This document shows positions 19,253 through 28,369 of a DNA stretch of 64,000 bases, piece by piece. Each line of letters starts with the position of its first letter. Within the stretch, counting starts at the first letter, position 1. The notes beneath the pieces are model-generated. The model saw nothing but the letters and a program-made list of their open reading frames with translations. It did no database searches and had not been told where the DNA came from. Location: the NCBI GenBank assembly GCA_903909375.1, contig CAIVVM010000020.1, forward strand, positions 62,001 to 126,000. The letters run 5' to 3'. The stretch comes from an uncultured Alphaproteobacteria bacterium. Its GTDB lineage: Bacteria; Pseudomonadota; Alphaproteobacteria; Caulobacterales; Caulobacteraceae. Both the position numbers and the translations under genes were made by a program.

Positions 19253-21325
19253 TCAGAACTTCACTCGCACCCTTCCGGCAACGCTGCGCGCCGCACCCGG
19301 CGTGATCCAGACGTTGCTGAACGAGCTCTCGAGATAGTAACTGTTGAACAGGTTTTCGACGTCCAGATGCAGGCTTGCCTTGTCGCTTAGCTGATAGGCG
19401 ACGTTGAACCGCGTGGTCACATAGTCCGGCAGTTCGAAGCCGCTGTTGATGTCGTCGCCGGGCCGTTCACCGACGTAGACAACGCCGCCGCCGAGGCTGA
19501 TTGAGCCGGGCTGATCCTCATCTGAGCGCCAGTTGGCATAGAGCGCTGCCGCAGACTTGGGGATGTTGCTGAAACCGCTGCCGACGAACCCGGCTCGGGT
19601 GTCCCGGGTGATCTTCGTGTCAGTATAGGCGTAAACCGCCGTGATCGTCGTGCGCGCGTCCAGCCGGTAGTTCACGTCAATCTCGAAGCCCCGGCTTCGA
19701 CCTTCGCCAACAGGAATCGAGAAACCGCTGTTGGCCGGATCGTTGACCAGGATGTTCTTCTTGGTGATCTCGAAGATCGAGGCTGTCCCGGTCAGGGCGT
19801 TATCCAGCAATGCATATTTGACGCCGGCTTCCAGCGCCTCGCCGCGCTCCGGGGCAAAGGCAGCGCCCGAGAAGCTGGAACCCTGATTGTACCGGAAGGA
19901 GCGCCCCCAACTGGCAAAGACAGACACCTGCTCATTGGGCGCCCATGTTATCGCGGCGCGGGGGCTGGTTGCCGACGGGGACTGTTTGCTGACGCTGTTG
20001 TTGCGGAAGTTGGTGTTGGTCTGCTGGAACCAGTCATGCCGGACACCCAGCAAGACGGTGATCTGCGACCCCAGCGAGACAAGGTCCTGGGCATAGATGC
20101 TCTGGCCCCGCAATTCCTCCAGGATGTTCTGGTTCAGCGTGGCGAGGGGCTTGGGCTGACCGTAGACCGGATTGAAGACGTCAATGAGGTAGGGGTTGGC
20201 CGCTGACGGATTGAAGCGGAAGAAGACCCGCTTCTGATCAAAGGCGAAGGCGTCCGCACCCACCCGTAGTTGGTGTTCAACACCCAGGATTTCCTGGTTG
20301 GCGCTTAGCTCAAGCCGGCCCGAGAGATCATCCCAGTTGTAATCGTGCACCCGAAGCTGGCGGCGAAGCTGGCTGCCGACCAGCAGGGCGTTGTGGGTTG
20401 ACTGACCTTCAAACGATCCCTCGCGATACTGCACGCCGCCTTCGAGCGCGATGCCCTCGGCGATGTCCAGCGTCAGCGAAGCCTGATGCTGGAGTGACTC
20501 CTGCCGCATCTTGCCGTCGTTGGGCTCGCCCAGGAAACGTGACCGGGGGAGCGCCTTGCCATTGCCGGCGACCGCGACCAGGCCGCGATCGTGGGTGAAG
20601 TGAACGAGCGCGCCTTCAAACTGGTACAGGAGCCGCAGGGTCTCGTTTGGCTCCCAGGCGATTGAAGGGGCGACCAGCAGGCGATCGCTGCCGACGAAAT
20701 CGCGGAAGCCGTCGGTCTCCTGATAGACGCCGATCAGGCGCGCCGAAACGCCTGCTCCCAGAGGTCCGCCAACGTCGACGACGCCGCGTCCGGTATTCTG
20801 CGTTCCGTAGGACAGTTCGGTCGACGCGTGAGCGTCCTTCAGGGGCGCTTTGGTGACAATGTTGATCGACCCCCCGGGTTCGCCTTTGCCGGACAGGGCA
20901 GAAGCCGGCCCCTTCAGCACCTGGAACAGCTCGACGGTGGCGACATCGCGTCGGGCGTTGAAGCCGCGATTGGCTGTGAAGCGGTTTACCAGCAGATCGG
21001 GGCCCTGGTTGATGTCGCCCGAAAACCCACGAATGGCATAGGCGTCCCACGCCCCTCCGAAGCTGTTCTGCCGCGCCATGCCTCCTGCATAGTCGAACAG
21101 GTCTGAGAGATTGGCGATTCCGGTTGTCGAGATCAGCGCTTCGTCAAGCACGCGAACGCTTTGTGGCAAGCGCAGGGTCTCGATCTCGATGCCATTGATG
21201 CTGGCGTTGGCCGCCCGCGACCCTGTGACGATGACCGCCTCCACATCGGTCACATCGGCGGCCAGGGCCGGCGTCGCGCTGAACAGCGCTGCGGAGGTCA
21301 TCAGAATGGCGAAACGCTGGCTCAT
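19253..21325 (-). CDS. TonB-dependent outer-membrane receptor (siderophore-receptor type)
   Basis: A 690-aa beta-barrel receptor. The start at 21325 is preceded by GGGGAAA and gives a signal peptide (MSQRFAILMTSAALFSATPA, cleaved near ALAAD). A TonB-box-like segment VEAVIVTG follows, then a plug with LPQSVRVLDEALIS, AIRGFSGD and LKGPASALSGKGEPGGSINIVTK, all typical of FhuA-type plugs. The barrel ends with RVRVKF; a terminal Phe is the outer-membrane sorting signal. The receptor should import a metal chelate or other scarce ligand with TonB-ExbBD energy. It is divergent from an ABC-2 transporter, with a Zur-like operator between, so a zinc-complex substrate is more likely than iron. Confidence 0.92.
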   Translation of the reverse strand: MSQRFAILMTSAALFSATPALAADVTDVEAVIVTGSRAANASINGIEIETLRLPQSVRVLDEALISTTGIANLSDLFDYAGGMARQNSFGGAWDAYAIRGFSGDINQGPDLLVNRFTANRGFNARRDVATVELFQVLKGPASALSGKGEPGGSINIVTKAPLKDAHASTELSYGTQNTGRGVVDVGGPLGAGVSARLIGVYQETDGFRDFVGSDRLLVAPSIAWEPNETLRLLYQFEGALVHFTHDRGLVAVAGNGKALPRSRFLGEPNDGKMRQESLQHQASLTLDIAEGIALEGGVQYREGSFEGQSTHNALLVGSQLRRQLRVHDYNWDDLSGRLELSANQEILGVEHQLRVGADAFAFDQKRVFFRFNPSAANPYLIDVFNPVYGQPKPLATLNQNILEELRGQSIYAQDLVSLGSQITVLLGVRHDWFQQTNTNFRNNSVSKQSPSATSPRAAITWAPNEQVSVFASWGRSFRYNQGSSFSGAAFAPERGEALEAGVKYALLDNALTGTASIFEITKKNILVNDPANSGFSIPVGEGRSRGFEIDVNYRLDARTTITAVYAYTDTKITRDTRAGFVGSGFSNIPKSAAALYANWRSDEDQPGSISLGGGVVYVGERPGDDINSGFELPDYVTTRFNVAYQLSDKASLHLDVENLFNSYYLESSFSNVWITPGAARSVAGRVRVKF

Positions 21326-21403
21326 CGGTTTTCCCCGGCCCGGTTCCACGCGAACCCGGGACTGCTGCCCGGATACGGGTCACAAATTCCAAGGTCAAGA
21401 TTT

Positions 21404-21420
21404 ATGTTACAACATAACAT
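21404..21420. promoter_or_regulatory. Candidate Zur (zinc uptake regulator) operator
   Basis: ATGTTACAACATAACAT is an inverted repeat of ATGTTA and TAACAT separated by five bases. The same 6-5-6 arrangement forms the core of the known Zur box of proteobacteria (ATGTTATAnTATAACAT). It lies between the TonB receptor start (21325) and the ABC ATPase start (21492). On the minus strand a possible -35 TTGACC (21397-21392) with TATCCG 17 bases on is adjacent; on the plus strand TTGACA is at 21425-21430. A Fur box would have a different half-site. The match is by eye. Confidence 0.7.
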
Positions 21421-21491
21421 CGCATTGACATCTGGCGGTCAGGTCTGCGATCAATCCTGTCGATCCATGATCCAGCAGGGGGTTCAGAACC

Positions 21492-22226
21492 ATGGCAGAG
21501 CCTTCAGCGGACGTGCTTCTGCAAGTGAATGACCTGCGTGTTTCATATGGCGACCGGGTGGTGCTTGACGGGCTCTCGCTGTCGGTTCGCAAGGCCGAGA
21601 TCTATGGTTTGCTCGGCGGGAACGGCGCTGGAAAGTCCACAGCGTTACAAGCCCTGCTCGGCCTTCTGAAGCCGCAATCCGGATCCATAGACATTGCGGG
21701 CGTTGATCCGCGGGACCGCCCGGATCTGGCCCGGGAGCGGATTGCCTACATTCCAGAGAATGTGGCGCTTTATGATCACCTGAGCGCAAAGGAAAACGTG
21801 TCGTATTTCCTGAGCCTGTCCGGTGGGAGCCGAACCACCGCCGAACTTGAAGCGGCCTTTGGCGCCGTCGGGCTGGCAAGGGATGCCTGGGGGCAGCGGG
21901 TCGCGGGCTTTTCGAAAGGCATGCGCCAGAAGACGGCGATCGCCATTGCAATCCTGCGCAGGGCGCCGGTTTTGCTGATGGATGAGCCCACGTCAGGACT
22001 CGATCCGGGCGCTGCCGCAGACTTCAACGCCCTGTGTGGTCGCCTTCGCGGTGAGGGTGCTGCGATTCTGGTCGTGAGCCATGACCTGCTGGGCGTTGTG
22101 GATCTGGCTGACAGGATCGGCTTTCTCGATCAGGGCCGGATTGTCGCCGAAGTCAGCGCCAAGGGTCCGGAGCGCTTCGATCTCCGCGCCCTGCATGATC
22201 GTTTTGCCCGGGCGCGTCCGGCGTGA
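21492..22226 (+). CDS. ABC transporter ATP-binding protein (ABC-2 type exporter)
   Basis: A 244-aa single nucleotide-binding domain: Walker A GGNGAGKST, signature-like FSKGMRQKTAIAIAIL in place of LSGGQ, Walker B VLLMDEPTSGLDPG, and H-loop VVSHDLLG. FSxGMxQK is typical of the CcmA/NosF/GldA-like branch that pairs with ABC-2 permeases. It is the first gene of a three-gene operon (GTGA and ATGA overlaps with the two permease genes). A GGGGG tract upstream is the ribosome site. It is divergent from the TonB receptor and probably shares its zinc control. Confidence 0.93.
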   Translation: MAEPSADVLLQVNDLRVSYGDRVVLDGLSLSVRKAEIYGLLGGNGAGKSTALQALLGLLKPQSGSIDIAGVDPRDRPDLARERIAYIPENVALYDHLSAKENVSYFLSLSGGSRTTAELEAAFGAVGLARDAWGQRVAGFSKGMRQKTAIAIAILRRAPVLLMDEPTSGLDPGAAADFNALCGRLRGEGAAILVVSHDLLGVVDLADRIGFLDQGRIVAEVSAKGPERFDLRALHDRFARARPA

Positions 22227-23671
22227 GGCGGGCTTCGGCAATTGCCGCAAACGAAATTCAGCGTCTTGTGCGCAGTCGGGTCGCGTTGACGGGCCTGTTG
22301 ATGGTGCTGCTGCTGACGGTCGCTGCCGCCGTTGCGTCTTCCGCCTACTACCGCGACCAGGGGGCGCTGCGAGAGCGGATGGAAGCCCAGGCGAACGCGG
22401 ACTTCACCCAGCAACCGGACCGCCACCCGCACCGTGTTGTCCACTTCGGACACTTCGCCATGCGCCCGCCCAGCGGGCTGGCCGCCATGGATCCCGGGGT
22501 GGAGCCCTTTACCGGTGTGATGGTCTATCTGGAGGGGCACAGGCAGAATAGCGCCAACTTCGGTGATGCCCGTCAATCCTCATTGCTGGTCCGGTTTGGC
22601 CAACTCTCGCCCGCCTTTGTCCTGCAAGCGGTCGCCCCTCTGCTGCTGATCTTTCTGGGCGCGGGTATGGTGGCGCGTGAGCGTGAGCGCGGGACCCTGC
22701 GGCAGATGATGCTCGCCGGCGCGTCAGGTGGAGACCTGATGATCGGCAAGATGCTGGCCCTGGGCGCCGCGGCGGCTGTCATGGCGACGCCTGCGGTACT
22801 ACTTGTCGGGAACCTCGGTCTCAATGGTCAGGTCGCGGCGATAACCGGCGGCATGATGCTGATGGGCTACGGAGCCTATCTGGTTTTCTGGGTCGTGCTT
22901 ACTGTCCTGGTCTCCGCCTTGACCCCGGGCGCCCGTCCTGCGCTCGTTTTGCTTACGGCGTTGTGGGCATTGAGCGTGGTTGTTGTGCCGCGCGTTGCAG
23001 CAGAAGCCGGCGCCGGACTGACCCAACTGGCCACACGCCTGGAGAACGACGTCGCGATCCAGCGCGACCTGCGCGACATGGGCGACAGCCATGATCCAGA
23101 CGATCCCTACTTCGACGCCTTCAAGCGGACGACCCTGAAACAATACGGTGTGGCGCGGGTTGAAGACCTGCCGGTCAACTATCGGGGCCTGCTGGGCATC
23201 GAGGGCGAACGCATGACCGCCAGCCTGTTCAATCGATACGCCGCGCAGAATTTCGCGGCCATGGCGGACCAGAGCCGGACAATGGATCTCGTGTCCGCCA
23301 TAAGTCCTACCGTGGCCCTGCGTCGTCTCTCCATGACGACAGCCGGTACGGATCTCGCCACCTATCGTCGCTTTATCGATGAAGCCGAGCGCTATCGATA
23401 TGAACTCGTTCAGCGCTTGAACCGGATGCAGGCCGAAAGCGTCACCTTCAAGGACGATGCCGCCAAGAGCAATGATGCCGCCGCCGAGGCAAGAAGTCGC
23501 GTCAGCGCCGACAACTGGCGTGCGACGCCGGCGTTCCGGTTCCCGCAGGAACCTGCTGCGGAGACTGCCGCGCGCGCGACGCCGTCGCTTGTGGTCATTC
23601 TGGTCTGGCTCGCGCTCGCTGCGGGGTTCGCAGGCCTGGCCGCCTCGCGTCTTCAGCGGGTGGCCCGATGA
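22223..23671 (+). CDS. ABC-2 type transporter permease, DUF3526-like (first)
   Basis: A 482-aa membrane protein with one N-terminal helix, a large periplasmic region (about 45-125), a bundle of about five helices (130-265), a second soluble region (265-450) and a C-terminal helix. The first periplasmic region contains RHPHRVVHFGHFAMRP, with four His in ten residues; a PHRxxH-type motif is characteristic of the DUF3526 permeases, so it is not by itself evidence of metal binding. The start GTG overlaps the ATPase stop and its stop overlaps the second permease (ATGA). With the ATPase and second permease it should form a heteromeric ABC-2 transporter; no periplasmic binding protein is encoded, suggesting export or membrane remodelling. 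Confidence 0.82.
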   Translation: MRRASAIAANEIQRLVRSRVALTGLLMVLLLTVAAAVASSAYYRDQGALRERMEAQANADFTQQPDRHPHRVVHFGHFAMRPPSGLAAMDPGVEPFTGVMVYLEGHRQNSANFGDARQSSLLVRFGQLSPAFVLQAVAPLLLIFLGAGMVARERERGTLRQMMLAGASGGDLMIGKMLALGAAAAVMATPAVLLVGNLGLNGQVAAITGGMMLMGYGAYLVFWVVLTVLVSALTPGARPALVLLTALWALSVVVVPRVAAEAGAGLTQLATRLENDVAIQRDLRDMGDSHDPDDPYFDAFKRTTLKQYGVARVEDLPVNYRGLLGIEGERMTASLFNRYAAQNFAAMADQSRTMDLVSAISPTVALRRLSMTTAGTDLATYRRFIDEAERYRYELVQRLNRMQAESVTFKDDAAKSNDAAAEARSRVSADNWRATPAFRFPQEPAAETAARATPSLVVILVWLALAAGFAGLAASRLQRVAR

Positions 23672-24933
23672 GCGCCATGACCCGGGAGCTATTCTTCTTT
23701 CTTCGCCTGCGGTCGGGGATTGCCGCGCTCGCGCTCCTCTTGTTGCTGGGACTGGGCGGCGTCGCGTCGGGTCTGCTGGAAACGCAACGACAGCATGACG
23801 CCATCGCGCGCATGCAGCCGTTGCAGGCGTCGGATGTCTCTGCGATTTCCGCTTGGGTATCGCGCAGTGGCGATCCGGGAAACGCGGCCTACTACACGTT
23901 CCACGCCACCTGGAATCCGCCATCGGATCTGGCCTTTGCGGCCCTTGGCTTGGGCGATGTCGCGCCGTCGATCCTGAGAGTCCGGGCCCTTGGACTCGAA
24001 GCCCAGCTTTACGAAGGCGATATCGTAAACCCCGAAGTCGCGATGCCGGGCCGCTTCGACTTCGCCTTTGTGCTCATCTACGTCGCGCCCTTGTTCGTCA
24101 TCCTGCTGCTGCACGATCTGTTTTCCGCCGAACGGGAGGCCGGGCGCCTGGGTGTCCTTCGGTCGACACCGCAGGCGACGGCGCGGCTATGGGCGCCGAG
24201 GATCGCGGTGCGGCTTGCAGGGTTGCTTGTCGCCCTGGCGCTCCCGTTCCTGCTGGGAGCTTTTATCGCCGGAACCCCGGGGTGGAAGACGGTCGCGGTC
24301 CTTGGATTGATTGCAGCCTATCTGGCGTTCTGGGCGCTTCTTTCGCTGGCCGTCGCCCGGCTTGGGACAACGTCCATCGGGAACGGCATGACACTCGCCG
24401 CGCTCTGGCTTGTACTGGCGCTGGTGGCGCCGTCACTCGCACACGTCGCGATCAACACAGCAGTCCCGCTGCGGCAGGGCGCGGAACTTTCGCTTCTGCA
24501 GCGAAACGCCGTGCATCGAGCCTGGGACATACCGAAAACCGCGACCATGGACCCGTTCTTCCAGTCTCATCCGGAATGGGCGGGTACCGCGCCCGTAACC
24601 GCACCCTTTCACTGGAAATGGTACTTCGCTTTCCATCAGGTTGGCGATGAGTCGGTCGCCACCCTGGCGCAGCAGTATCGCGACGGGATCCTCGAACGGT
24701 CACGCCTGGCCGAGCGGCTTGGCCTGATCCTGCCGACGGTTGGCGTGCAACTGGCCCTCCATCGCCTGGCGGAAACCGATCCACGTGCGCAACTCGCCTA
24801 TCAGGACCGCATCCGGGCTTTCCACAAGCGCCTGCGGACATTCTACTATCCGTATATCTTCAACGAGCTTCCTTTCGGGATGGAGGATTTCGACAAGGCG
24901 CCCCGCTATGCGCCCGAAACCAAACAGCCATGA
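23668..24933 (+). CDS. ABC-2 type transporter permease, DUF3526-like (second)
   Basis: A 421-aa membrane protein with the same plan as the preceding permease: N-terminal helix (SGIAALALLLLLGLGGVASG), periplasmic part with YYTFHATWNPPSDLAFAALGLGDV, then a helix cluster (DFAFVLIYVAPLFVILLLHDLFSAEREAGRL), and a second soluble domain before the end. FHxxxxPPSxLAF and the DxFSxEREAGxL turn are typical of DUF3526 proteins. The long soluble segments may form a periplasmic chamber. ATGA overlap couples its translation to the first permease. The C-terminus has no final helix after about residue 275, unlike the first permease. Confidence 0.8.
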   Translation: MSAMTRELFFFLRLRSGIAALALLLLLGLGGVASGLLETQRQHDAIARMQPLQASDVSAISAWVSRSGDPGNAAYYTFHATWNPPSDLAFAALGLGDVAPSILRVRALGLEAQLYEGDIVNPEVAMPGRFDFAFVLIYVAPLFVILLLHDLFSAEREAGRLGVLRSTPQATARLWAPRIAVRLAGLLVALALPFLLGAFIAGTPGWKTVAVLGLIAAYLAFWALLSLAVARLGTTSIGNGMTLAALWLVLALVAPSLAHVAINTAVPLRQGAELSLLQRNAVHRAWDIPKTATMDPFFQSHPEWAGTAPVTAPFHWKWYFAFHQVGDESVATLAQQYRDGILERSRLAERLGLILPTVGVQLALHRLAETDPRAQLAYQDRIRAFHKRLRTFYYPYIFNELPFGMEDFDKAPRYAPETKQP

Positions 24934-25005: not shown

Positions 25006-25908
25006 TCATCCCGGAACCGGAAACCCGCCCGCCCGGCTGACCGACGCCGCGGGCGTCTTGCCCACCAAGGCTGAAGCCCAGTTCCCGATCTCGATGAGCT
25101 TGCCCAGATCGTAGGTCGTCTCGAACCCGGCGCGTTCCAGCATATAGACCAGATCCTCGGTGCCGATGTTGCCGGTTGCGTTGGGGGCGAACGGACAGCC
25201 GCCCAGGCCGCCGACGCTGGCATCCAGAATGTCGACCCCGGCCTCGACGCCCGCGAAGGCGTTGGCCAGGCCGGTGTTGCGCGTGTCGTGGAAGTGCAGG
25301 CGCAGCGGAATGTCGCCGGTCAGCTTGCGGGCCGCCTCCACGCGGCGGCGCACCAGCCAGGGATCGGCGACGCCGATGGTGTCAGCCAGAGCGATCTCGG
25401 CCACCTTCAGGTCGGCGGCGGCCTTCACGATTTCCATCACACGGGCTTCGGGGACCTCGCCCTCGAAAGGGCATCCGAACGCGACGGAGATCGTCATCGA
25501 GATCGGCGGGTCGCCGGGCGTTCGCATGGCCACGATGGCGGCCAGCGCGTCCACCTGCTCGGCCGTCGAGGCGCCCTGGTTGCGAATGCCGAAGCCGTCA
25601 CTGGCGCAGACCACCACATTGGCCTCGTCGCACCGGGCTTCGACGCAGCGCTCCCAGCCCCGGGCGTTCAGCACCAGGCCGATCCGGGAGCGGCCCTCGG
25701 CGTGGGGCAGGGCAGCCATGATCTCTTCTGCGCCGGCCATCTGCGGCACGCGCTTCGGATTGACGAAGGACACCACCTCCATGCGCCGTGCGCCGGCGGC
25801 CTCGAGCCGGGCGATCATCTCCAGCTTCTGGCCGACATCCAGCAGGGTCTTTTCGTTCTGCAGGCCGTCGCGCGGGCCCACTTCCACGATCTCGATCTTG
25901 CGTCCCAT
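25006..25908 (-). CDS. mvaB: Hydroxymethylglutaryl-CoA lyase
   Basis: This cytoplasmic TIM-barrel enzyme splits HMG-CoA into acetoacetate and acetyl-CoA, the last step of leucine catabolism. The 300-aa protein has EVGPRDGLQNEK (R13, D14), metal ligands H205 and H207 in LHFHDTRNTG, and the flexible catalytic loop GGLGGCPFAPNATGN with C238. Length is normal for bacterial HMGCL. It overlaps the upstream ArnT-like gene by one base (TAATG) although their functions are unrelated. The other leucine-degradation genes are not in the window. Confidence 0.93.
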   Translation of the reverse strand: MGRKIEIVEVGPRDGLQNEKTLLDVGQKLEMIARLEAAGARRMEVVSFVNPKRVPQMAGAEEIMAALPHAEGRSRIGLVLNARGWERCVEARCDEANVVVCASDGFGIRNQGASTAEQVDALAAIVAMRTPGDPPISMTISVAFGCPFEGEVPEARVMEIVKAAADLKVAEIALADTIGVADPWLVRRRVEAARKLTGDIPLRLHFHDTRNTGLANAFAGVEAGVDILDASVGGLGGCPFAPNATGNIGTEDLVYMLERAGFETTYDLGKLIEIGNWASALVGKTPAASVSRAGGFPVPG

Positions 25909-27596
25909 TATGGTGTCTCCCGGGCGTCCATGTCGGGCGCCACATAGACCCTCAACGTCATCGGGTCGCCCTTGGAGTAGTTCAGGCCCTCGATCTTGGC
26001 CACTTCCTCGGCCCGGCCGCCGCGCGCCTTCAGCGCGGCGCGGAAGGCGGCCTCCTCGAGATCCTCGACAATCGCGGGGCGGTTCTCGACCACGGCGCGT
26101 GCAGCTTCATCCGGCCCGTCCAGCTCGGTGGCGGTGCCCAGGGCGAAGACCAGACTGGGCTCGGCGAACCCGGCCACAGCGACGGGCGCCTCGGCCACGC
26201 CCTGTCGCGGCAGCAGCCGGTTGTCGCCCATGGCGCGTTCGAGGCGTGCTGATAGCCATAACGGTTCCAGGCGCGGCGCCAGGCCCGCCGCCAGCGCGCC
26301 ATGACCCAGCGCGCCCAGTGTCAGCGCCGCAGCGGTGGCGGCGACGGGGGCCTTGCGGATGAACAGTCCGGCGCCGACAAGACCCGCACCGGCCAGCAGA
26401 CCCGCCGTCAGGGTCGCGGTCCATAGATCGCCCGGGTCTCCGTACAGGGACAGCAGAAAGACCACCCCGCCAGCCAGCGCCAGGCCAGCCAGAGCGCAGA
26501 GGCCGGCGCCGATCCAGCGTGATACCCGCCCGATTGGCTCAGCCAGGGCGCGCGCCGCCAGCCAGGCCAGGGCGCCATAGGTGGGCAGCGTATAGTGGGG
26601 CAGTTTGGTGGGCAGCAGCTCAAACATGATCCAGGTCGGGATCAGCCAGGCCATTGCGAACCGCACCCCGGGCTCCTGCCGCCAGCGCCAGGCGCCGATC
26701 ACCGCCGCAGGCAGCAACAGGGTCATGGGAAAGGCCAGGATCGGCGTCAGCAGGGTGTGATAGCCAAACGGTGCGCCATGCGTTTCCTGACCACCGGCCA
26801 GCTTGGGCGCCAGGTCGGACCCCACCGCCTGGGACCAGAAGCCTCCGTCGGTGGCGACTGTCACCGCCCCCGCCCAGGGCCCGACCACCGCCAGTACGAT
26901 CATCAGACCCCACCACCATTGCATCTGGCCAAGCCAACCCGCGCGACGGTCGGCAATGATCAGGGCCACGATCGCAAGCAGGGCCACCATCGGCCCGACC
27001 GGTCCCTTTATGAGTGTCGCCAGGGCGATACCGGTCCAGAACAGCCAGACCGCCGCGGAACCTGCCGCCGGTCCGCCATTTCGGGCGGAATAGAGCCTGG
27101 CCAGGGCGGCCATCGCCAGCGTCGTCACGCCGGCCAGCATGGCGTCGGTCTTGGCAATGAAGGCCTCGGTTGAGAGCAGGAAGCTGGCCCCCAGCAGGGC
27201 GCCGGCCACCAGCGCCGTCCGGGCGTTGAAGAACGCCGCCGCCCCCCAGACGCAGGCCGCCGCCGCCAGCATCGCGCCCATCAGGGAGGGAATACGGTAG
27301 GCCCAGATTTCCCGGGCTTCAGGACTTGAGAAGGTTGAGACGCTGGCCGCCTGTAACCAGTGAATGCCCACAGGCTTCTTGAAACGGGGCGCATCCTGGA
27401 ACTGGATGACCACGAAGTCATGGCTCTCCAGCATCTGGGCTGTTGCCTGGGCGAAGCGGGCTTCGTCCCGGTCCAGTGGCGGCATGGCGATCAGCCCGGG
27501 CAAGCCGGCCAGAAAGGCGATCAGGGCCGCAACCGCCGGACCCCGCCAGCCGCCGCTCCATTTCGCCATGATGTCGTCCAGCGTCATGCGACTCAA
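25908..27596 (-). CDS. ArnT-like family 39 glycosyltransferase (polyprenyl-phosphate-sugar dependent)
   Basis: A 562-aa polytopic membrane protein. LPGLIAMPPLDRDEARFAQATAQML carries the first-periplasmic-loop acidic pair (DRDEAR) of GT39/GT83 enzymes, followed by FQDAPRFKKPVGIHWLQA (KPPL/HWxQ-like). About 12 helices and a C-terminal soluble domain (from about 430) match ArnT/PMT-like enzymes, which transfer a sugar from undecaprenyl phosphate to lipid A or protein in the periplasm. The GT2 gene divergent 35 bp away could make its polyprenyl-phosphate-sugar donor, a frequent pairing. Substrate unknown. Confidence 0.87.
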   Translation of the reverse strand: MSRMTLDDIMAKWSGGWRGPAVAALIAFLAGLPGLIAMPPLDRDEARFAQATAQMLESHDFVVIQFQDAPRFKKPVGIHWLQAASVSTFSSPEAREIWAYRIPSLMGAMLAAAACVWGAAAFFNARTALVAGALLGASFLLSTEAFIAKTDAMLAGVTTLAMAALARLYSARNGGPAAGSAAVWLFWTGIALATLIKGPVGPMVALLAIVALIIADRRAGWLGQMQWWWGLMIVLAVVGPWAGAVTVATDGGFWSQAVGSDLAPKLAGGQETHGAPFGYHTLLTPILAFPMTLLLPAAVIGAWRWRQEPGVRFAMAWLIPTWIMFELLPTKLPHYTLPTYGALAWLAARALAEPIGRVSRWIGAGLCALAGLALAGGVVFLLSLYGDPGDLWTATLTAGLLAGAGLVGAGLFIRKAPVAATAAALTLGALGHGALAAGLAPRLEPLWLSARLERAMGDNRLLPRQGVAEAPVAVAGFAEPSLVFALGTATELDGPDEAARAVVENRPAIVEDLEEAAFRAALKARGGRAEEVAKIEGLNYSKGDPMTLRVYVAPDMDARETP

Positions 27597-27631
27597 ATAG
27601 CACGATCCTTTCGCGCGCCGACTTTTCCGCT

Positions 27632-28369
27632 ATGCAGGCAGCCATGGTTTTGGCGCCTGAAATTTCTGTAGTCGTCCCGGTGTTTGACGAAGCCGGCGCA
27701 GCGCCCGGCCTGGCGCGGGAGATCGCGACGGCGTTCGCAGGTCGATCATTCGAAATCCTGTTCGTGGATGACGCCAGCCGGGATGACACCCGGGCGGCGC
27801 TCCATGCCCTGCGCGCCGAGATTCCACAGCTGCGCGTGCTGGCGCACCGGCGTAACTCGGGACAAAGCCGCGCTATCCGCAGCGGCATCCTTGCCGCCCG
27901 TGGCCCGGTGATTGTCACCCTCGATGGCGATGGTCAGAACGACCCTGCGGATGGTCCCGCCCTGGTGGACGCGCTTGTGGCGGGCGGACCAGAACTGGCC
28001 ATGGTCGGCGGCGAGCGTGTCAAGCGTCAGGACAGCCAGGCCAAGAAGCTGGCGTCACGCTTCGGCAACGGCATTCGCAGGCGGCTTCTGCGCGACACGG
28101 CCCGCGATACCGGCTGCGGCCTGAAGGCCTTCCGCCGGGAGGCGTTCCTCAGGCTTCCCTACTTCGACCACATCCACCGCTATCTGCCGGCGTTGATGTT
28201 GCGGGAGGGCTATGAAGTGGCGTTCCGGCCGGTCCACCACCGCCACCGGCAGACCGGGCAGTCGAAATACACCAACCTCGGCCGGCTGATGGCCTCGCTC
28301 TCGGACCTGCTCGGCGTCATGTGGCTACAGTCGCGCTCGCGGAACCCAGGCGGCGTCGACGAACTCTGA
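27632..28369 (+). CDS. Family 2 glycosyltransferase, polyprenyl-phosphate mannose/glucose synthase-like
   Basis: A 245-aa GT-A enzyme without C-terminal membrane helices. EISVVVPVFDEAG, FVDDASRDDT, VTLDGDGQNDPAD (DxD metal site) and the late RHRQTGQSKYTNLGRLMASLSDLL follow the dolichol-phosphate mannosyltransferase pattern. These enzymes load a sugar onto a polyprenyl phosphate on the cytoplasmic side. It is divergent from the ArnT-like gene, which would use the product. ATG codons at 27632 and 27644 are both possible; no strong ribosome site separates them. Confidence 0.87.
   Translation: MQAAMVLAPEISVVVPVFDEAGAAPGLAREIATAFAGRSFEILFVDDASRDDTRAALHALRAEIPQLRVLAHRRNSGQSRAIRSGILAARGPVIVTLDGDGQNDPADGPALVDALVAGGPELAMVGGERVKRQDSQAKKLASRFGNGIRRRLLRDTARDTGCGLKAFRREAFLRLPYFDHIHRYLPALMLREGYEVAFRPVHHRHRQTGQSKYTNLGRLMASLSDLLGVMWLQSRSRNPGGVDEL

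What the first reader, a model, noticed from the sequence alone, without database searches (positions are those of the whole stretch)
19253..24933. Zur-box-controlled TonB receptor with an ABC-2 exporter lacking a binding protein: possible zinc-chelator export/import loop
The 166-bp divergent region between a TonB-dependent receptor and a three-gene ABC-2 (ATPase plus two DUF3526-like permeases) operon contains ATGTTA-N5-TAACAT, the exact half-site spacing of the classical Zur operator. Under zinc starvation both units would be switched on together. The ABC system has no periplasmic binding protein and belongs to a branch that usually exports or remodels, so the pair could export a zincophore and re-import its metal complex. 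No chelator biosynthesis gene was recognised nearby, so the ligand would be made elsewhere or be a host or peptide compound. DUF3526 permeases have no assigned substrate in my knowledge, so this would be informative.
Basis: partly seen in the sequence, partly recalled or inferred. Interest (0 to 1): 0.78.

Follow-up and report, generated by a model that had tools for sequence, protein, structure and literature searches.

The report
Zinc-starvation receptor with ABC-2 transporter
A zinc-controlled switch sits between an outer-membrane receptor gene and a three-gene transporter operon; this is the counterpart of a zinc-uptake locus already known in Caulobacter, and related loci suggest the transporter works on the uptake side rather than exporting a zinc-binding compound.

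Summary
ATGTTA-N5-TAACAT lies at 21404-21420 between a divergent TonB-dependent receptor and an ATPase/two-DUF3526-permease operon, with no binding-protein gene beside it. Four genome sites match the pattern with at most one mismatch; the other three precede ZnuD-like, ZigA and DmeF/CobW-type genes, and the genome encodes a Zur-like regulator. The locus is the orthologue (63-70% identity) of Caulobacter znuK/znuGHI, whose Zur control is published (microarray, lacZ, EMSA; znuK mutants fail in EDTA). So the regulation is known in kind. What ZnuGHI does is not settled in what I found in print. New evidence here: the receptor/DUF3526 pairing spans Proteobacteria; Zur-like boxes are about 80-fold denser at its promoters than elsewhere in the loci; carriers mostly lack ZnuB (present in 5 of 21, versus 290 of 377); no ZnuA, ZIP, NIS or NRPS match was found in the window genome; both permeases resemble NosY; permease H carries an invariant His/Glu loop; one genus drives the module with a cobalamin riboswitch (4 of 4 loci); 17 of 96 loci add an M14 peptidase. 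This favours an uptake-side machine for metal complexes over zincophore export. Direction is inferred, not shown.

The parts
19253..21325 (-). TonB-dependent receptor, ZnuK orthologue (siderophore-receptor type); an upstream GTG at 21349 gives a longer frame
21404..21420 (.). Zur operator-like palindrome ATGTTA-N5-TAACAT
   Evidence: sites at the same place in relatives; Zur-bound counterpart in C. crescentus
21492..22226 (+). ABC ATPase, ZnuG orthologue
   Evidence: 66% identity to L046
22223..23671 (+). ABC-2 permease with DUF3526, ZnuH orthologue
   Evidence: AF2 mean pLDDT 87.7; NosY-like fold
22412..22456 (+). first periplasmic loop motif of permease H, residues 64-78, QPDRHPHRVVHFGHF
22532..22540 (+). 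E104-G105-H106 of permease H, second part of the conserved His/Glu set
23668..24933 (+). ABC-2 permease with DUF3526, ZnuI orthologue (short form that ends after the DUF3526 domain)
   Evidence: AF2 mean pLDDT 85.7; NosY-like fold, weak E-values

Best explanation
The locus is the orthologue of Caulobacter znuK/znuGHI, a zinc-starvation divergon. Zinc-loaded Zur sits on the palindrome and shuts both promoters; when zinc runs low both sides are expressed (shown in C. crescentus, inferred here). The siderophore-type receptor ZnuK then takes zinc, probably as a complex with a foreign or environmental ligand, across the outer membrane with TonB energy. ZnuGHI, an ABC-2 machine of two different NosY-like permeases and one kind of ATPase, does the energised step on the uptake side: it moves the metal or complex across the inner membrane, or prises zinc off its ligand at the periplasmic face. 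It stands in for the ZnuABC that was not found, needs no adjacent binding protein, and uses a conserved His/Glu site in the first periplasmic loop of permease H. Regulation is near certain (about 0.95); the uptake-side role is inferred; the exact step and direction are unshown.
For: Regulation; published microarray, lacZ and EMSA data on the orthologous intergenic region (PMC4176598); L059 (C. vibrioides DSM 9893) carries exactly the published 19-bp znuG site. Zur-like sites with 0 mismatches: 24 in 64 kb of promoter DNA versus 0 in 1686 kb elsewhere; 54 of 96 distinct loci have a site at up to 1 mismatch. The 9-row clade that holds the window permease is 9 of 9 Zur-boxed. Uptake role: znuK mutants form no colonies at 850 uM EDTA and zinc rescues them. 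ZnuB absent from 16 of 21 DUF3526 genomes versus 87 of 377 others (Fisher p 1e-6). The window genome shows no ZnuA and no ZIP, and only a weak ABC-3 match, E 7.5e-5. The named control C. vibrioides rings for DUF3526 but not for ABC-3, ZnuA or Zip. The module sits behind a cobalamin riboswitch in 4 of 4 loci of one genus. Fold: NosDFY entries head both Foldseek lists, Z 23.4 for permease H. H70 and H106 are kept in 133 of 133, H74 and E104 in 130 of 133 permease H sequences. An M14 zinc-carboxypeptidase-like gene lies by the module in 17 of 96 loci, which would suit a peptide-like foreign ligand.
Against: ABC-2 proteins are mostly exporters or remodelers (general knowledge). No znuG, znuH or znuI mutant is reported in the sections of the 2014 paper that I read. 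The ZnuB anticorrelation is not corrected for ancestry; within Caulobacteraceae it is 0 of 21 versus 18 of 128, p 0.08, and many genomes lack both; 5 of 21 carriers have ZnuB. The ZIP contrast is not significant. 42 of 96 loci show no box at up to 1 mismatch, among them same-genus loci L038, L039 and L041. 23 of 96 loci show no receptor within 2.6 kb at over 100 bits. In 16 of 17 loci from three genera of another family the ABC-2 genes have no receptor nearby, so the machine can work without one. One locus (L113) has possible biosynthesis genes behind the receptor. E-values of the NosY matches are weak for permease I (best 9.4e-3).
Confidence: 0.58

Rival explanations
1. NosFY-like remodeler: ZnuGHI moves nothing across the inner membrane. 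ATP use at the inner face pulls on the periplasmic loops and drives zinc release from, or loading of, a periplasmic carrier or enzyme.
For: Closest solved folds are NosDFY chains for both permeases; NosFY with NosD is needed for CuZ assembly in the periplasm (review passages); the conserved His/Glu set is in the first loop after the first membrane helix (periplasmic side inferred from the ABC-2 fold).
Against: None of the ten frames scanned at the window locus is NosD-like; the neighbours of other loci were listed but only 30 frames of them were annotated (and parts of 79, 98). A shared fold shows no function; ABCA and ABCG proteins follow at Z 14-20.
Confidence: 0.2
2. One reading: ZnuGHI exports an apo-zincophore and ZnuK brings back its zinc complex.
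For: ABC-2 type, no binding protein, co-regulated siderophore-type receptor. One of 96 loci (L113, Pseudomonas nabeulensis) has a PLP decarboxylase and an ornithine-cyclodeaminase-type frame directly behind the receptor.
Against: No NIS or NRPS condensation match in the genome; no biosynthetic gene beside the window locus; the two L113 genes have no homologue in any other fetched locus searched, and the cyclodeaminase frame runs into a DUF736 domain, so it looks rearranged; cobalamin-riboswitch version; ZnuB anticorrelation. The opine search had no positive control, so an opine or other metallophore is not excluded.
Confidence: 0.1
3. Ligand recycler: zinc is freed in the periplasm or cytoplasm and ZnuGHI pumps the empty foreign ligand back out.
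For: Fits both the ABC-2 export habit and the zinc-starvation phenotype of the receptor mutant; needs no biosynthesis genes.
Against: Leaves open how zinc then crosses the inner membrane in a genome where ZnuA, ZnuB and ZIP searches gave no convincing match. No direct evidence.
Confidence: 0.1
4. The palindrome is a Fur box or a chance match and the genes are iron genes.
For: The receptor matches siderophore-receptor models best.
Against: The other three close sites in the genome precede ZnuD-like, ZigA and DmeF/CobW-type genes; the orthologous region is bound by purified Zur; strong enrichment at promoters of relatives.
Confidence: 0.02

Closest known systems
Caulobacter crescentus znuK (CC1517) / znuGHI (CC1518-CC1520), Zur regulon, Mazzon et al. 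2014 (PMC4176598)
   Same: Divergent receptor and ATPase plus two ABC-2 permeases, Zur palindrome between them; 63-70% identity to the C. vibrioides proteins
   Different: Box differs in spacer and flanks; no experiment exists on the window genome
ZnuABC zinc importer
   Same: Zur-controlled ABC system for zinc starvation (by inference)
   Different: No ZnuA-type binding protein found in the genome and no convincing ABC-3 permease; DUF3526 ABC-2 permeases instead
NosFY of NosDFY (copper, nitrous oxide reductase maturation)
   Same: Closest solved fold to both permeases
   Different: Two different permeases with long loops; receptor partner; Zur control; no NosD-like frame at the window locus
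ZnuD zinc receptor
   Same: Zur-type box before a TonB-dependent receptor; a ZnuD-like one lies elsewhere in this genome (L003)
   Different: The window receptor matches TIGR01783 siderophore receptors; ZnuD was not among its listed matches

Membership tests
znuK/znuGHI divergon | receptor divergent from ATPase plus two ABC-2 permeases | tested here: met
znuK/znuGHI divergon | Zur palindrome in the shared intergenic region | tested here: met
   two matches each; 9-row clade, FastTree SH-like support 100
znuK/znuGHI divergon | repression by Zur with zinc; receptor needed for growth in zinc starvation | not testable with these tools
   published for C. crescentus
Zur regulator in the genome | Fur-family protein of Zur type | tested here: inconclusive
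   L006 frame: only NCBIfam match at 1e-8 is Zur NF008646, 105 bits, under its cut-off of 167; FUR Pfam 39 bits, over its cut-off
ZnuABC | ZnuA-type binding protein and ABC-3 permease | tested here: not met
   no PF01297 match in the genome; only a weak ABC-3 match elsewhere in it
NosFY | NosY-like ABC-2 fold | tested here: met
   VIA-align run for permease H only
NosFY | NosD gene beside the ABC genes | tested here: not met
   ten frames at the window locus; NosD was not sought in the whole genome
zincophore export/import loop | metallophore biosynthesis genes in locus or genome | tested here: inconclusive
   no NIS or NRPS-C match; opine search without positive control
zincophore export/import loop | ABC-2 exports the ligand | not testable with these tools
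   needs mutants and spent-medium analysis

The most novel reading that the evidence does not exclude
DUF3526 ABC-2 systems are a general, binding-protein-free partner of siderophore-type TonB receptors that handles metal complexes on the uptake side. The metal is set by the receptor and by the regulator: Zur for zinc in most lineages seen, a cobalamin riboswitch (cobalt or corrinoid) in one genus. The Q64/H70/H74/E104/H106 loop of permease H would be the shared metal or complex site; H68 and H290 are near-universal in the main group around the window (a group partly selected by motif) and N and E in the cobalamin group. In Sphingomonas- and Xanthomonas-type loci a secreted-looking M14 peptidase joins the unit and may free zinc from a peptide ligand. 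This would be an ABC-2-fold machine working in import, or a metal-release machine, in place of ZnuABC.
Probability: 0.35. Interest if true: 0.8.

Novelty: new member of a known kind. Interest (0 to 1): 0.48.

Why it matters
Most sampled genomes with this module show no ZnuB (16 of 21), so how zinc enters their cytoplasm in starvation is an open question. The Zur-controlled ABC-2 system is the obvious candidate, and my searches (open-licence papers only) found no report of a mutant or assay of it. The comparison gives concrete targets: a conserved His/Glu loop, a NosY-like fold, an M14 peptidase partner, and a natural regulator swap from Zur to a cobalamin riboswitch. An ABC-2-type machine working in metal uptake would be unexpected.

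Tried and rejected
Rejected: a Fur box. I did not score a Fur motif in the window itself; the argument is that the three other close sites are zinc- or metal-type and the orthologue binds Zur. Rejected as evidence: the count of sites at up to 2 mismatches in the genome, which does not exceed the reversed control. The first motif count used a pre-set pattern (33 versus 6 sites, duplicates of five loci included). The second pattern allowed A/T at one position in each half and was chosen after I had looked at the upstream regions, so its enrichment is somewhat favourable to me. Same-genus loci L038-L041 have only degenerate half sites; of them only L040 counts as boxed.

Connected-component clustering of neighbours was dominated by antisense frames and one merged cluster; I did not use it. 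My first reading of the neighbour listing missed a recurrent frame of about 600 residues behind or beside the receptor; on rechecking, 5 of 7 such frames scanned are Peptidase_M14, one had no match and one was a receptor, and BLAST finds the family in 17 of 96 loci. Nineteen frames of that listing, of many more, were scanned with Pfam, and most of ten. The L113 case speaks for the export loop; I raised that rival from 0.08 to 0.10 and lowered my own reading from 0.60 to 0.58.

Led nowhere: promoter scan; viral contigs, no relative; opine dehydrogenase, no positive control. ZIP contrast not significant (1 of 21 versus 23 of 128 over cut-off, p 0.20).

Selection: the 80 named loci (80 kept of 349 confirmed) were found with patterns that include the HPHR motif or YGVxRxEDLP, so conservation of H68, H70 and R71 in them is partly built in. 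Loci from Pfam DUF3526 searches were not chosen that way; in the 33 sequences outside the main group, all from those calls, H70 and H106 are 33 of 33.

Counts: a receptor lies next to DUF3526 in the phylum sample in 15 of 18 loci at over 100 bits and 17 of 18 at over 50 bits. Five duplicate loci (L057, L059, L071, L072, L115) were dropped before the 96-locus counts. Tree labels were typed by hand. Fisher tests were run on counts that I made by hand. Of 23 DUF3526 genomes, G771 and G736 were not fetched.

Literature searches: DUF3526: 0 papers; znuGHI: 3 papers. Of PMC4176598 I read the outline with abstract, passages, and sections 7, 8 and 9; of PMC6103462, PMC7558416 and PMC3621897 passages only; the rest search listings only.
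Full report
Observation. The window holds ATGTTACAACATAACAT at 21404-21420 in the 166 bp between a TonB-dependent receptor on the minus strand (19253-21325, or to 21349 with an upstream GTG) and a plus-strand operon of an ABC ATPase (21492-22226) and two permeases with DUF3526 (22223-23671 and 23668-24933). One site with up to 2 mismatches occurs in the window where 0.20 is expected; 20 of 100 shuffles had one too, so the site alone is modest evidence.

Genome context makes it strong. In the 3.69 Mb genome four distinct sites match RTGTTAYNNNRTAACAY with at most one mismatch: this one, exact; one between a DmeF-type CDF gene (over its cut-off) and a CobW-type GTPase; one before a ZnuD-like receptor (partial frame, under its cut-off); one before a GTPase that passes the ZigA cut-off. 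The genome has two Fur-family proteins; one matches Zur NF008646 alone at 1e-8 (105 bits, cut-off 167), the other Fur models best. At up to two mismatches the pattern is no commoner than its reversed control (11 versus 12).

The locus is known in a relative. In Caulobacter crescentus the Zur-repressed genes include znuK (CC1517, receptor) and znuGHI (CC1518-1520, ABC-2 ATPase and two permeases) with GATGTTATATCATAACAAT as Zur site; fold changes in the zur mutant are 41 for znuK and 12-38 for znuGHI. lacZ fusions respond to zinc and zur, purified Zur shifts the znuK/znuGHI region, and znuK and znuL mutants form no colonies at 850 uM EDTA unless zinc is added. The sections I read report no znuGHI mutant; the paper and a later review call it an uptake system.

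Conservation. DUF3526 occurs in 21 of 149 genomes sampled from the family, always twice, and in 21 of 398 from the phylum, twice in 20 and once in G312. In 20 Caulobacteraceae loci a receptor is found in 19 (L053 none) and a close Zur-type site lies by the module in 14. Over 96 distinct loci (window, 20, and 75 of 80 named loci) a receptor lies within 2.6 kb in 73, most often divergent upstream (38) or upstream on the same strand (25). With the pre-set pattern, close sites number 33 in 943 kb near the module versus 6 in 906 kb further away. With a pattern relaxed after inspection, exact matches number 24 in 64 kb of promoter DNA versus 0 in 1686 kb, one-mismatch matches 33 versus 18, and 54 of 96 loci have one. 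Some others show weaker sites. In 18 phylum loci (one of them, L170, the same record as L116), Zur-type sites lie by the module in L164, L168, L169, L170, L171, L175, L178 and L180, 8 of 18. In L179, which shows no such site, the operon follows a Fur-family regulator (type unresolved) and a type B L36 gene, a ribosomal protein switch typical of zinc starvation by general knowledge. In the permease tree the nine-row clade with the window is all Zur-boxed, support 100.

What replaces ZnuABC? ABC-3 permease (ZnuB) at E 1e-20 or better is in 295 of 398 phylum genomes but in only 5 of the 21 with DUF3526 (Fisher p 1e-6). Within Caulobacteraceae matches at E under 1e-10 are 0 of 21 versus 18 of 128 (p 0.08). 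ZIP over its cut-off is 1 of 21 versus 23 of 128, not significant. None of this is corrected for ancestry. The window genome has no ZnuA match, no ZIP match and only a weak ABC-3 match. No NIS synthetase and no NRPS condensation match was found; the opine search had no positive control.

A regulator swap. In four of four loci of one genus (g33: L165, L166, L191, L192) a cobalamin riboswitch lies directly before the receptor of the same four-gene module (gene positions). The two receptors tested match siderophore-receptor models, with no BtuB model listed at 1e-15. Of 47 loci scanned with Rfam, chosen mainly because they showed no Zur box, these four are the only ones with it before the module; in L112 and L128 a cobalamin riboswitch lies elsewhere in the locus. 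Genes repressed by coenzyme B12 are mostly for making or importing corrinoids or cobalt (general knowledge), so the module there probably works in uptake. In 16 of 17 loci from three other genera of that family the ABC-2 genes have no receptor nearby, so some members do something else.

A recurrent extra partner. In 17 of 96 loci (Sphingomonas-, Novosphingobium- and Xanthomonas-type) a gene related to M14 zinc carboxypeptidases lies by the module; 12 of these 17 have a Zur-type site at up to 1 mismatch. In L101 it takes the divergent place opposite the ATPase. It may free zinc from a peptide ligand (inference). No such frame is among those scanned at the window locus; the rest of the genome was not searched for it.

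A case against me. In L113 (Pseudomonas nabeulensis) the receptor is followed by a PLP decarboxylase and an ornithine-cyclodeaminase-type frame that runs into DUF736; neither has a homologue in the other loci searched. These could be metallophore genes.

Structure. AF2 models of the permeases have mean pLDDT 87.7 (H) and 85.7 (I). NosDFY entries head both Foldseek lists; the matched chains are NosY by length and fold (my inference). E-values are 2.8e-4 for H (two under 0.001) and 9.4e-3 for I (none under 0.001). For H, VIA-align gives NosY Z 23.4 (rmsd 3.3, 242 aligned), then ABCA4 20.2; I was not run. In permease H, H70 and H106 are kept in 133 of 133 rows, H74 and E104 in 130, Q64 in 132. 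H68 and H290 are kept in 99 and 100 of the 100 rows of the main group, but are N and E in all four cobalamin-riboswitch sequences. The named loci were partly found by the HPHR motif, so H68 and H70 are biased there; the 33 rows outside the main group were not, and keep H70 and H106 in 33 of 33. In permease I the best-kept His in the main group are H386 (98 of 100), H315 (86) and H149 (83), and these are not kept outside it to the same degree.

Reading. Zur control is close to certain. Most likely ZnuK brings in zinc, probably as a complex, and ZnuGHI does the energised uptake-side step in place of ZnuABC, by transport or by NosFY-like release. No step of ZnuGHI function was measured in anything I found. 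Searches for znuGHI, DUF3526 and related terms found no later experimental work on it in the library (listings only).

Noticed in passing
L165:8450-8658, L166:5287-5494, L191:9276-9485, L192:9406-9602: Cobalamin riboswitch directly before a siderophore-type receptor plus DUF3526 ABC-2 operon, 4 of 4 loci of genus g33.
   Followed up: partly
L063, L067, L068, L069, L073, L082, L085, L093, L100-L103, L107, L109-L111, L114: M14 zinc-carboxypeptidase-like gene beside the receptor/ABC-2 module, 17 of 96 loci.
   Followed up: partly
L193-L196, L198-L209: DUF3526 ABC-2 operons without a receptor nearby in genera g58, g264 and g266; L201 has a Methylosinus-1 RNA. Function unknown.
   Followed up: no
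L179:6217-7762: Fur-family regulator, type B L36 gene and DUF3526 ABC operon in a row; no close match to the Zur pattern, but an inverted repeat GTTATTG...CAATAAC lies between the first two.
   Followed up: partly
L113:3412-7981: Receptor followed by a PLP decarboxylase and an ornithine-cyclodeaminase-type frame that runs into DUF736; possible metallophore genes, perhaps rearranged.
   Followed up: partly
L164:14655-15236 and L084:5370-6017: DUF1826 gene directly behind the receptor in two loci.
   Followed up: no
L038-L041: Same-genus loci keep the module with a receptor of only 35-37% identity and degenerate boxes; in L038 inside an 11-bp inverted repeat CTGTCAATGCT...AGCATTGACAG.
   Followed up: partly
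L002:1501-1517: Zur-type box between a DmeF-type CDF exporter and a CobW-type GTPase, about 81 kb from the window box on the same contig.
   Followed up: no
window 23668-24933: Permease I ends after the DUF3526 domain; a C-terminal membrane helix was detected in 27 of 96 loci by a crude hydropathy test, not in the window.
   Followed up: partly
window 25908-28369: ArnT-like glycosyltransferase and GT2 gene next door, unrelated to zinc as far as seen.
   Followed up: no
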